This document shows, piece after piece, positions 28,113-31,853 of a stretch of 34,276 nt of DNA. This DNA comes from Archaeoglobaceae archaeon (GTDB lineage Archaea > Halobacteriota > Archaeoglobi > Archaeoglobales > Archaeoglobaceae): contig JANXEF010000010.1 in the NCBI GenBank assembly GCA_025057895.1, positions 1-34,276 on the forward strand, in the 5' to 3' direction. Positions within the stretch are counted from its first letter, which is position 1; every line of letters starts with the position of its first letter. The translations under genes and the position numbers were made by a program. Below the pieces are notes generated by a model. That model was given only the letters and a program-made list of their open reading frames with translations, was not told where the DNA came from and did not search any database.

Positions 28113-28547
28113 ATGGAAAAAGTTAGGTTAGGCTTTGTGGTTTCAGAGTTCAACAGAGATATAACTTACATGATGGAAATACTCGCAAAAGAGCATGCAG
28201 AGTTTCTTGAAGCAGAAGTTTTTGAAGTCATTCGAGTTCCGGGAACCTTTGACATACCTATTGCTGTTAAAAAGATGCTGGAAAAAGGAAATGTTGATGC
28301 AATCGTCGCAATAGGTTGTGTTCTTGAAGGAGAAACAGAACACGATGAAATTGTAGCCCAACACTCTGCTAGAAAGATAATGGATTTAAGCATAGATTTT
28401 GGAAAACCTGTAACCCTTGGAATCAGTGGTCCAGGTATGGGCAGAATTGCAGCAGCGGAGAGAATTGATTATGCAAAGAGAGCAGTTGAAGCAGCTGTTA
28501 AACTTGTTAGGAGGCTGAGAGAATATGAAAGTGGCAAGAAGAGTTGA
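28113..28547 (+). CDS. ribH: 6,7-Dimethyl-8-ribityllumazine synthase
   Basis: RibH condenses the pyrimidine and butanone-phosphate precursors to lumazine, the step before riboflavin. The 144-residue protein has [11 protein letters not shown] at the start, [15 protein letters not shown], and the active-site block [17 protein letters not shown] with catalytic His77. It ends [23 protein letters not shown]. It supplies flavin for FAD, FMN and F420 enzymes. The next gene overlaps by 23 bp. The gap to the divergent cupin gene is 46 bp, so the two promoters must overlap. Confidence 0.95.
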
Positions 28548-29658
28548 ATTGATAAATCCCTCCCCAACTCTCAAGATCTCTTCGATTGCCAAACAACTCT
28601 CTAGGGAAGGAAAAGATGTAGTAGACATGAGCGTTGGTGAACCAGACTTTAAGACACCACAGAGAATAATAGAAGCAGCTTACAGGGCTATGAATGAAGG
28701 AAAAGTTTTTTACACACCAACTAAAGGGATTCCAGAACTTTTGGATGCTATAGCAGAAAAGATGAGAAGAGAGAATAAAGTAGATGCAACTGCAGAAAAC
28801 GTAATTGTCACTCCAGGGGCAAAGTATGCGATTTTCGAGGCTATGATGAGTCTAGTCGATGAGGGAGATGAGATCATACTTTTTGATCCATCTTGGGTCA
28901 GCTATGAAGCCTGTGCCTTGATGGCTGGAGGTAAGGTTATCTGGGTTCCACATAGCGAAGATTTCAGCGATGTCCCAGTTGAAGAGTTCGTTAGTCCAAA
29001 GACAAAGATGATCATTGTTAACACACCAAGCAATCCTTTGGGTGTAGTTTATGGGAAAGAGTTCTTGAAGAAGATACGAGATATCGCGTTAGATGAGGAC
29101 ATATTTGTCATGTCTGATGAGATATACGAGAAGATAATTTTCAAGGGAACCCATTACAGTATTGCTAGCTTTGAAGATATGTTTGATAAAACTATCACGA
29201 TAAATGGATTCTCAAAAACTTATTCGATGACTGGATGGAGAATAGGTTATGCGGTAGCACCTAAGTGGATAATAGAGAAGATGAACGTTATTCAGTCACA
29301 TTCTGTCAGTCATCCAACTTCTTTCGTTCAATTTGCAGCCATCGAAGCGTTGAAGAGAGATGATTCATTCTTGAGAGAAATGGTTATGGAATTCAAGAGA
29401 AGGAGAGATATGATAATGGAGAGACTCGATGAACTTGGGATCAGTTATGCTCCACCAAATGGGGCCTTTTACATATTCATGAACGTTGGAAGAGATGGAG
29501 ATAAGTTCTGTGAAGAATTTCTGAAAAAAGAATATGTAGCGCTAATTCCAGGTTCTGCTTTTGGTGTTTCTTTCAAGAATTGGGTTAGATTGAGCTATGC
29601 AATTTCAAGAGAAGAAATTTCAGAATTTTTGAGAAGATTTGAGCGTTTTATTTCTTAA
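28525..29658 (+). CDS. aspC: Class I/II aminotransferase, aspartate aminotransferase-like
   Basis: The 377-residue PLP enzyme exchanges amino groups between aspartate or other amino acids and 2-oxoglutarate. Family motifs are [13 protein letters not shown], the [15 protein letters not shown] loop, [11 protein letters not shown] (substrate-binding Asn), SDEIYEKI, and the PLP lysine Lys231 in [17 protein letters not shown]; the C-terminal Arg lies in NWVRLSYA. Archaeal members of this Igamma group may use Asp, Tyr or Phe. The start overlaps ribH by 23 bp, so it is translated with it; I see no metabolic link beyond co-regulation. The gene ends in AT-rich DNA with the repeat TTAATATTTT. Confidence 0.92.
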
Positions 29659-29813
29659 TATTTTATCTTTTAATATTTTTCAATAAGCCTTTTGATCTCA
29701 GGTGAATTGAACTATATCTCATAAAATTTGCTCCAGAAATACAAAAAAATAGGAGAATGATTACGATGAACTTCGAATTTTTTGGTATTATTAATTCGAA
29801 TTAAAAAGTATTG

Positions 29814-29903
29814 CTATTTCTTTTCTTTCTTTGTGGTCTTCTCCTCTCCCTTTTCCTCTTTTTTCTCTTCCTTAGGCTTCTTACCCTTCGCACACTTTGC
29901 CAT
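29814..29903 (-). CDS. 29-residue Lys/Glu-rich micro-protein
   Basis: ATG 29903 opens a short frame that ends with TAG. It encodes MAKCAKGKKPKEEKK followed by more Glu/Lys and two Thr. Thirteen of 29 residues are lysine and seven glutamate; one cysteine sits at position 4. The TATA box TTTAAATATT (minus strand of 29921-29930) is ~23-26 nt upstream, placing transcription at or next to the ATG, so the gene has its own leaderless promoter. Neighbours are aspC (convergent) and tRNA-Ser (upstream). The charge pattern suggests a disordered nucleic-acid- or ribosome-binding peptide. I do not know its family; low complexity could also arise by chance. Confidence 0.5.
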   Translation of the reverse strand: MAKCAKGKKPKEEKKEEKGEEKTTKKEKK

Positions 29904-29920
29904 GATAAACAAATGTTTTG

Positions 29921-29930
29921 AATATTTAAA
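29921..29930 (-). promoter_or_regulatory. TATA box of the micro-gene
   Basis: The minus strand reads CTTTTAAATATTC. Spacing to ATG 29903 fits a leaderless transcript. Confidence 0.4.
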
Positions 29931-30019
29931 AGTTTTTCTCTCTTCTAATTTAATCTCTTTGAAAAGTATCCCCTTTTGAATTTTAAAGAATATCCATAAG
30001 ATTTAAACACCAACTAAAA

Positions 30020-30102
30020 CGCCGGGGGTGGGATTTGAACCCACGCGGGCAAAGCCCAGTAGATCTCGAGTCTACCGCCTTAGCCAACTCGGCAACCCCG
30101 GC
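30020..30102 (-). tRNA. tRNA-Ser (anticodon CGA)
   Basis: The 83-nt gene reads GCCGGGGTTGCCGAG... on the minus strand. It has a long variable arm (class II). Acceptor GCCGGGG pairs with CCCCGGC, and discriminator G (complement of 30020) is typical for serine. The anticodon stem GTAGA/TCTAC encloses CUCGAGA, so the anticodon is CGA. There is no intron or CCA. A TATA-like TTATAAATAG (minus strand near 30131) lies ~28 nt upstream. Confidence 0.95.
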
Positions 30103-30188
30103 AGAGTATATTATAGTAATTTAATTCTATTTATAAGTTTTATCCAAATATTTGTCATTTCTATTTAGACAAAAAATCTTGAGCTTCT

Positions 30189-31853
30189 TTAGGAGAGATC
30201 TAAAACTTCAAATCTCTCTACATCTATTAATCCGAGATCTGTAAGTTTCAGCTTTGGGATAACTGGCAAAGCTAAGAAGGACAGAGTTATTATTGGTGAT
30301 CTCAGCTTACAACCCAAATTCTTTATTTTTTCCTCCAACATCTTTAAATTTTCAAAGACATCTTCTGCTCTTTCATCGCTGATCAATCCAGCAACTCTTA
30401 AGGGTAGTTCTGTGAATTTTCCATCGTAAACAACTATTCCTCCCTGAATTTCAATCACTCTGTTCACAGCCATACAGATCTCTGTATCGCTTGATCCTAT
30501 GGCAACTATGTTATGTGCATCATGAGCTATGCTTTGAGCAATAGCGCCTTTTTTAAGCCCGAAACCCTTCACATAGGCTTTTCCAACTCTTCCAGTGTTA
30601 TGGTGTCTCTCAACGACAACAGCTTTCAGTATATCTCTTTCAATGTCTATTCCTTCAACGAATTCGACGATCTCACCTGTAATTATTTCTCCATCTAGTA
30701 CCTCTATTATTCTTTTTTTTCCACTTTTTATCCAGAGATCCTCTTCTCGTAACTTTTTTGCCCTAATCGTGTTCTTTACATGATCTGGATATCTGTAAGA
30801 TCTGAATTCTGGCTCTTTTCCTCCAATGAACACTTTTTCAACTACAAAATTTCTCAAGTCTTTTAGCAGAACTATATCTGCAAACCTACCTGGGGAAATA
30901 AAACCTGCTTTTATTCCAAAATACTCTGCCGGATTTAATGTTACCATCTGCAGAACTTTAATTTCATCTATCCCTTCTGCAACTGCTTTTCTGAAAACAC
31001 TGTCTAGATAACCTTCAAGAAATAAATCCTTTACACTTCGATCTCCATCTGTTACGAGCATTGTGTATCTATGTCCAGCGAGACCCTTCAGAGCTTTTAG
31101 ATTTCTCCCAGCTGATCCTTCGCGTATCATTATTCTCATACCGAGTCTCAACTTTTCTTTGGCTTCATAGATTTCGCTGCTCTCATGGTCTGAAAAAATT
31201 CCTGCTGAGATATATGCGTTTAGATCTTTTCCTAGAATTTTTGGACAATGTCCATCAACGATTCTCGCTTTGATTATCTTTTCAATTGTCCAGTCTTCAG
31301 CTTTTATTACTGCTGGATAGTTCATGAACTCTGCAAGCCCTATGACTCCTTCTAACCTCATGAGCTCTTCTATCTCCTCGGTTTTGATTTCTGCTCCAGA
31401 AGTTTCGAGTTGTGAAGAAGGGACACAGGAAGGAATTAAACAGTAGAATCTAAGCGGGACTATTCTCGCCTCTTCAAGAAGATATATTATTCCATTTTTA
31501 CCTAGAACATTAGCGATTTCGTGTGGATCTGCAACGACGCAAGTATTACCCCTTGGAACTACGAGTCTTGAAAACTCAGAAAGTGTTAAAAGACTCATCT
31601 CGATATGTGTATGCGCGTCTATCAATCCAGGAATTGCATAGAACCCTTTTGCATCTAATTCTCTTAATCCACTGTAGTGCCCAATTCCGGCAATTCTATC
31701 TCCACATACTGCAATGTCAGCAGTGTATATCTCTTCAGTTAGCACATTCACAACTTCGGCCCTTTTTATAACTAATTCTGCTCTCTCTTTTCCTCCAGCA
31801 ACTAAGATCAATCTTTTTAATTCATCCTTCGATAATTTCCCTGACGATATCAT
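30189..31853 (-). CDS. ade: Adenine deaminase
   Basis: It converts adenine to hypoxanthine and ammonia in purine salvage. The 554-residue amidohydrolase opens its barrel with GLIDAHTHIEMS (metal ligands His81, His83). VVADPHEIANVLG, DGHCPKI and SDHES hold further ligands, and TLNPAEYFGI starts the returning beta domain. The C-terminal region has HDAHNIVAIGSSDTEI and GGIVVYDGK, as in the AdeC family. It overlaps the upstream phosphoribosyltransferase by 32 bp. The pair makes a salvage route from adenine via hypoxanthine to a nucleotide. Confidence 0.95.
   Translation of the reverse strand: MISSGKLSKDELKRLILVAGGKERAELVIKRAEVVNVLTEEIYTADIAVCGDRIAGIGHYSGLRELDAKGFYAIPGLIDAHTHIEMSLLTLSEFSRLVVPRGNTCVVADPHEIANVLGKNGIIYLLEEARIVPLRFYCLIPSCVPSSQLETSGAEIKTEEIEELMRLEGVIGLAEFMNYPAVIKAEDWTIEKIIKARIVDGHCPKILGKDLNAYISAGIFSDHESSEIYEAKEKLRLGMRIMIREGSAGRNLKALKGLAGHRYTMLVTDGDRSVKDLFLEGYLDSVFRKAVAEGIDEIKVLQMVTLNPAEYFGIKAGFISPGRFADIVLLKDLRNFVVEKVFIGGKEPEFRSYRYPDHVKNTIRAKKLREEDLWIKSGKKRIIEVLDGEIITGEIVEFVEGIDIERDILKAVVVERHHNTGRVGKAYVKGFGLKKGAIAQSIAHDAHNIVAIGSSDTEICMAVNRVIEIQGGIVVYDGKFTELPLRVAGLISDERAEDVFENLKMLEEKIKNLGCKLRSPIITLSFLALPVIPKLKLTDLGLIDVERFEVLDLS

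What the first reader, a model, noticed from the sequence alone, without database searches (positions are those of the whole stretch)
29814..29903. A 29-residue Lys/Glu-rich micro-protein gene with its own promoter
The frame has ATG, stop and a well-spaced TATA box in an otherwise empty gap. Almost half the residues are lysine, with an MAKCAKGKK start. Small basic proteins of this type may bind RNA, ribosomes or DNA and are often missed by annotation.
Basis: partly seen in the sequence, partly recalled or inferred. Interest (0 to 1): 0.55.

Follow-up and report, generated by a model that had tools for sequence, protein, structure and literature searches.

The report
Tiny lysine-glutamate protein, archaeal genus-specific
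A real gene for a 29-residue, lysine- and glutamate-rich protein with one cysteine is kept under selection in a genus of Archaeoglobaceae archaea; what it does is still unknown.

Summary
On the minus strand, 29903 to 29814, an ATG..TAG frame encodes MAKCAKGKKPKEEKKEEKGEEKTTKKEKK, with an archaeal BRE/TATA-like element whose TTTAAA starts 27 nt before the ATG (leaderless layout, inferred). It is a true gene: five of nine other genomes of the genus carry a 26-30 aa homologue (MxKC, then a K/E-rich tail) with TTTAAA 25-27 nt before the ATG. Between G005 and G008, 18 substitutions in 28 codons give 17 silent codons and one Ser/Thr change; 0 of 20,000 random placements alter so few residues. Position 2 is A, P or T and Cys4 is invariant; AlphaFold2 gives a moderately confident helix, residues 7-29. 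Cys-less MAKKK frames occur in three genomes, a similar MFKRKKK frame in a fourth, an ACG-headed copy in G001. Of the hits outside the genus that I translated none clearly belongs; the nearest is a 24-aa deltaproteobacterial look-alike. The gene is not tied to tRNA-Ser. No Pfam, NCBIfam or PDB sequence match. Most likely it is a lineage-specific cationic microprotein that binds RNA, ribosomes or DNA; that role is inferred only.

The parts
29814..29903 (-). microprotein ORF, 29 aa, MAKCAKGKKPKEEKKEEKGEEKTTKKEKK, stop TAG
   Evidence: translation; homologues in 5 of 9 other same-genus genomes; silent-substitution bias between relatives
29923..29930 (-). TATA box TTTAAATA, first base at -27 from the ATG
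   Evidence: TTTAAA starts at -25 to -27 in all six MxKC genes
29932..29938 (-). BRE-like element GAAAAAC upstream of the TATA box
   Evidence: an A-rich run lies at about the same place in the other five
29799..29807 (-). T-rich stretch after the stop (TTTTTAATT), possible archaeal terminator
   Evidence: no hairpin terminator found in 29600-30250; a T-rich run also follows the G001, G004 and G007 copies but not obviously the G005 and G008 copies
30019..30103 (-). tRNA-Ser (CGA), same strand, 115 nt upstream; neighbour, not part of the gene
28525..29658 (+). class I/II aminotransferase, convergent neighbour; in G005 its orthologue is convergent with the Cys-less MAKKK gene

Best explanation
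A genuine stand-alone gene, probably transcribed as a leaderless mRNA of about 100 nt, encodes a genus-specific cationic microprotein. Shown by sequence: the coding frame, its conservation, the promoter-like element, invariant Cys4 and composition. Inferred: Met is removed (position 2 is A, P or T), leaving a short basic Cys-bearing N-tail on a charged helix (residues 7-29). The peptide most likely binds an RNA or DNA surface (ribosome or another nucleoprotein) by charge, with Cys4 as a contact, metal or disulfide point. The Cys-less MAKKK genes would be sister copies. Existence of the gene: about 0.95. The nucleic-acid or ribosome role: about 0.35-0.4.
For: Six MxKC genes with a K/E-rich tail, 26-30 aa, differing in length only in frame. 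G005/G008: 28 aligned codons, 18 substitutions, 17 silent codons, 1 replacement; 12.4 altered residues expected, 0 of 20,000 random placements as low. G007/G004: 6 substitutions, 2 silent and 2 replaced codons (fraction 0.013); G007/G001: 23 substitutions, 6 silent and 10 replaced codons (fraction 0.003). In G005/G008 the TATA element and ORF stand out from diverged flanks. Charge +6 to +8, pI 9.7-9.9. AlphaFold2 helix 7-29, mean pLDDT 70, pTM 0.25. The possibly related MFKRKKK frame of G002 lies just upstream of an RNA-methyltransferase-like gene and ribosomal protein L3.
Against: No transcript or peptide data. No constant neighbour that would point to a target. MxKC form not found in 4 of 10 genus genomes (G002, G003, G006, G009) by the patterns, so it is hardly a universal ribosomal part. 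A nearly balanced K/E helix is a weaker nucleic-acid ligand than an Arg/Lys-only peptide (general knowledge). Between the MPKC pair and the others the tail order is not conserved, only its composition. The start is not proven: G007 and G005 have an in-frame ATG 21 and 15 nt upstream, G000 an in-frame TTG 9 nt upstream. G004 and G007 are so close that their downstream flank is conserved too, so that pair adds little.
Confidence: 0.45

Rival explanations
1. A hydrophilin-like or single-alpha-helix protectant: an abundant charged peptide that keeps other proteins soluble at high temperature by bulk charge, with no specific partner.
For: No hydrophobic core (0-1 V/I/L/F/W/Y residues in the six), K/E-rich, predicted helix; Cys-less genes of similar composition in the genus.
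Against: The K/E order is kept between G005 and G008 over the 28 aligned codons through 17 silent codon changes, and Cys4 is invariant in the six; both argue for a more specific contact than bulk charge.
Confidence: 0.25
2. A metal- or redox-linked peptide: Cys4 binds a metal or forms a disulfide with a partner, the charged helix being only a handle.
For: Cys4 invariant in the six; a similar 24-aa MAKCG frame in a deltaproteobacterium lies about 61 nt downstream of a NifU-domain gene.
Against: Only one Cys and no His; sister genes with comparable promoters lack Cys; relatedness of the bacterial frame is unproven.
Confidence: 0.15
3. A small RNA gene or leader peptide in which the peptide itself has no role.
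For: Short unit with its own promoter; a same-strand gene follows in G001, G004 and G007.
Against: Silent-substitution bias shows selection on the peptide; in G000, G005 and G008 the next gene is convergent, so nothing downstream is there to regulate; no Rfam match at the locus.
Confidence: 0.04
4. Chance open frame in a purine-rich stretch.
For: Low-complexity K/E codons arise easily in purine-rich DNA.
Against:: conserved across species, rare in shuffles, silent-substitution bias.
Confidence: 0.01

Closest known systems
Archaeal small proteins below 70 aa found by Ribo-seq (Methanosarcina mazei, PMC11456600; I saw the search listing with the start of the abstract, and passages from a find)
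   Same: Unannotated very short coding genes in a euryarchaeon.
   Different: No sequence link tested or claimed; the word lysine has 0 occurrences in the held main text.
Ribosomal protein eL41 (recalled)
   Same: About 25 residues, highly basic, helical (recalled).
   Different: eL41 is Arg/Lys-rich with hardly any acid (recalled); the window protein has no Arg and 7 Glu; no PDB sequence match.
SERF / Hero-type charged heat-soluble proteins and single-alpha-helix K/E segments (recalled)
   Same: K/E-rich, no hydrophobic core, helix or disorder.
   Different: Those are longer and described from eukaryotes (recalled); not compared directly here.
24-aa frame MAKCGTTKKTEKKAAPKKAKKIKK in Deltaproteobacteria bacterium UBA5758 (L122)
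   Same: MAKCG start, Lys-rich, GGGAGG shortly upstream.
   Different: Bacterial, one Glu only; homology not shown, may be convergence.

Membership tests
MxKC K/E microprotein family of this genus (defined here) | M-x-K-C start followed by a K/E-rich tail, 26-30 aa | tested here: met
   (the window gene helped define the family)
MxKC K/E microprotein family of this genus (defined here) | TTTAAA starting 25-27 nt before the ATG | tested here: met
   note G005 and G008 were found with a pattern that already asked for TTTAWA, then again without it
eL41 ribosomal protein | Arg/Lys-rich, almost no acidic residues (recalled) | tested here: not met
   0 Arg, 7 Glu
eL41 or another ribosomal protein of solved structure | sequence match to a chain in the PDB | tested here: inconclusive
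   profile A4 gave 0 matches up to E 10, but profile searches are weak on such biased sequence: the genome search with A4 missed two of its own members
Curated protein families (Pfam, NCBIfam, PHROGs) | significant match of a member | tested here: not met
   none for six members in Pfam and NCBIfam up to E 10; two PHROGs at E 0.4 and 0.46 for one of six
Zinc-binding small proteins with two C(P)XCG motifs (as in the abstract start of PMC10716476, listing) | two C(P)XCG motifs | tested here: not met
   one Cys only in each of the six
Hydrophilin / Hero / SERF-like protectants | protects clients against heat or drying | not testable with these tools
   needs an assay

The most novel reading that the evidence does not exclude
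A lineage-specific peptide family, with a Cys and a Cys-less form, is an integral or stress-regulated component of the ribosome or chromatin of these Archaeoglobaceae. Its genes change place among intergenic sites, often beside tRNA genes, and Cys4 acts as a thiol switch on a nucleic-acid-bound helix.
Probability: 0.12. Interest if true: 0.65.

Novelty: new member of a known kind. Interest (0 to 1): 0.38.

Why it matters
Short K/E frames are easily discarded as low complexity, and profile tools miss them (one search failed on two of its own members). Here a gene of 26-30 codons shows clear protein-level selection, so such frames can be recovered by promoter spacing plus a silent-substitution test. 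If it proves ribosomal or chromatin-bound it would add a lineage-specific part to an archaeal nucleoprotein.

Tried and rejected
Profile search of 392 phylum genomes with alignment A4: 4 genus members plus two weak hits (E 0.33 and 0.83); it missed G005 and G008, so its negatives mean little. The single-protein search found only the window and one hit at E 0.49. The DNA search gave seven matches besides the window's own: two (L002, L004) led to homologues; L007 is the K/E-rich end of another protein; L003 gave no K/E frame as I read it (plus strand); L005, L006 and L008 were only scanned by script. The first pattern try had a spacing error of mine and found nothing, not even the window gene.

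Leader-peptide and small-RNA readings were rejected on the silent-substitution pattern and the convergent neighbours. Association with tRNA genes: as I group them (G001, G004 and G007 as one), four of seven sites of the MxKC, MAKKK and MFKRKKK genes lie within 500 nt of a tRNA (Ser; Glu; Asn; Phe) and three show none in the DNA held. Intergenic DNA is enriched for tRNAs and I made no proper null, so I claim nothing.

Pattern hits outside the genus: the six (G080, G160, G168, G278, G297, G315) translate to frames that are not K/E-rich, some short and K/R-rich; the reversed control pattern itself hit twice in G048 and once in G035. In the all-species scan (14 stretches) four are this genus, four are Aminicenantes proteins read as 200-216 aa (L128 at a contig end), one is a 53-aa archaeal protein with CxxC motifs, four are short frames unlike the family, and one is the UBA5758 frame. 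The looser genus pattern gave 22 rows against 8 rows for the reversed control, and the MAKKK genes were picked from it by reading translations; the stricter gave four matches (three MAKKK genes and one 175-aa protein) with one control hit. The loosest genus pattern had about as many control hits as matches; the translated loci held only known members and unrelated short frames. Hits without a locus were left untranslated apart from those fetched.

Literature: searches showed nothing on this family in their listings; besides listings I saw only passages of PMC11456600. The library holds open-licence papers only.

Full report
What is there. The window is G000:C1 of a 1.01-Mb, 79% complete assembly. 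Four same-genus contigs (G001:C72, G005:C8, G008:C50, G004:C27; lengths) agree in length and match with named records of Archaeoglobaceae or Archaeoglobales MAGs (JASKJN010000006, JAAOZI010000033, CALIUJ010000050, JASFYH010000004), so the genus belongs to that group. The finding's frame is on the minus strand, 29903 to 29814. It sits between a plus-strand aminotransferase (28525-29658, PF00155) and a minus-strand tRNA-Ser (30019-30103).

Chance. Of 156 frames of 18-45 aa from a first ATG in the window it is the only one with K+E at or above 50%; 100 shuffled windows gave two at 50% or more, one at 60% or more, and that one without TTTAWA in place. In the 601,810 bases of loci held then (redundant, and many fetched for this very pattern), the distinct frames with K+E at or above 55% were eight: four MxKC genes (G000, G001, G004, G008), three Cys-less ones (G005, G007, G002) and one unrelated frame in L089. 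The G005 and G007 MxKC genes drop out of that count because an in-frame ATG 15 or 21 nt upstream lengthens the frame.

Homologues. Six of 10 genus genomes carry the MxKC form: G000 MAKCAKGKKPKEEKKEEKGEEKTTKKEKK; G001 MAKCGARKKKAEEKKETKTEKKEEKK; G004 MTKCGTGKKKAEKKEEKTAKTEKEKKTKK; G007 MAKCGAGKKKAEKKEEKTTEKEKKTKK; G005 MPKCSKGGGKKKAKEEKKAEYSKGEEKAKK; G008 MPKCSKGGKKAKEEKKAEYTKGEEKAKKKK. A pattern without the TATA box found the same six of 10 and 0 of the other 49 class genomes, with no reversed-control hit in the genus; of 392 phylum genomes six others had a hit, none K/E-rich, and the control hit in two genomes. Not found in G002, G003 (73% complete), G006 and G009. All these are exact-pattern searches and can miss diverged members.

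Selection. In G005/G008, 28 aligned codons differ at 18 bases: 17 silent codons, one Ser/Thr. Random placement of 18 changes alters 12.4 residues on average and never one or fewer in 20,000 trials. The other pairs are weaker: G007/G004 2 silent and 2 replaced codons (fraction 0.013), G007/G001 6 and 10 (0.003). Gaps were placed by hand for these counts. In G005/G008 the TATA element and ORF stand out from diverged flanks; G004 and G007 are close, and part of their flanks is conserved as well.

Promoter and start. TTTAAA starts 25-27 nt before the ATG in all six, preceded by an A-rich BRE-like run. From general knowledge of archaeal promoters this puts the transcription start at or near the ATG, i.e. 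a leaderless mRNA; this is inference. The in-frame ATG of G007 at -21 overlaps the TATA box and the extensions are not shared among the six, so I take MxKC as the start.

Sister genes. Cys-less frames: G005 MAKKKEKKAEEKKEEKKEEKK, G007 MAKKKEKKEEKKAEPGKQAQTQAEKK, G009 MAKKKAEKKKEEKTATDKGSTSQEKKGGK, each with TTTAWA 27-28 nt before the ATG; G002 MFKRKKKEEKKEEKTEEKKKEEKAEKK has a GAGGTG upstream instead. G001 has, directly upstream of its MxKC gene and 26 nt after the start of a TTTAAA, a frame headed by ACG instead of ATG (TAKKKEKAERKEEKKEEKK); it may be decayed, use an unusual start, or be a MAG error. Leaving that copy out, 8 of 10 genomes have at least one such gene (none found in G003 and G006). 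In G005 the MAKKK gene is convergent with the orthologue (84% identity) of the window's aminotransferase, the position of the window's MxKC gene, and the MPKC gene lies about 1.1 kb away beyond a DNA_primase_S-domain gene. Relatedness of the Cys-less frames to the MxKC genes is likely but, at this length and composition, not proven.

Protein. Net charge +6 to +8, pI 9.7-9.9, no V/I/L/F/W/Y apart from one Tyr in G005 and G008. Residue 2 is A, P or T, so Met removal is expected (general knowledge). AlphaFold2 on the G008 protein with six rows: helix 7-29, mean pLDDT 70, pTM 0.25, moderate only.

Known families. No Pfam or NCBIfam match, two PHROGs at E 0.4-0.46, no Rfam match at the locus, no PDB sequence. 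An all-species exact-pattern scan found, outside the genus, one look-alike, a 24-aa frame in a deltaproteobacterium; a viral scan found two 15-aa phage frames starting MAKCG and one unrelated frame. Homology with either is unproven.

Verdict. A genuine genus-level microprotein gene, correctly spotted. Function is inferred: a cationic, probably helical, Cys-bearing peptide most likely bound to RNA, ribosome or DNA.

Noticed in passing
L161:3334-3381 and L162:9000-9047 (viral contigs): 15-aa frames MAKCGYKKGKGKKGK and MAKCGSKKGKGKKGK with a Shine-Dalgarno-like AGGAG, directly after a portal-protein gene (phrog_156, P22_portal) in two phage contigs.
   Followed up: partly
L122, minus strand from about 4595: 24-aa MAKCGTTKKTEKKAAPKKAKKIKK with GGGAGG upstream, about 61 nt after a 76-aa NifU-domain gene, in Deltaproteobacteria bacterium UBA5758.
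   Followed up: partly
L004, about 1394-1453 (G001): K/E-rich frame headed by ACG in place of ATG, 26 nt after the start of a TTTAAA, directly upstream of the MxKC gene.
   Followed up: partly
L071:9659-10300 and L072:9228-10100 (G007, G004): Proteins with an acylphosphatase-like N-terminal part (Pfam match for the G007 one) followed by a run of MLEKQD-type repeats whose copy number differs between the two species.
   Followed up: no
L051, L052, L054, L070 (genus g2 of the family): 41-43 aa MNKC proteins with two CxxC motifs and TTTAAA 27-28 nt before the ATG: another small, possibly leaderless, zinc-ribbon-like gene.
   Followed up: no
L106 (G002), about 1450-1533 minus: MFKRKKKEEKKEEKTEEKKKEEKAEKK lies just upstream, on the same strand, of a Methyltrn_RNA_3 gene and ribosomal protein L3, so possibly at the head of a ribosomal operon.
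   Followed up: partly
L121, L127, L128, L130: Aminicenantes Cys-rich proteins, read as 200-216 aa, starting MAKCSKCK(K/R)RKGKR, alike in four MAGs.
   Followed up: no
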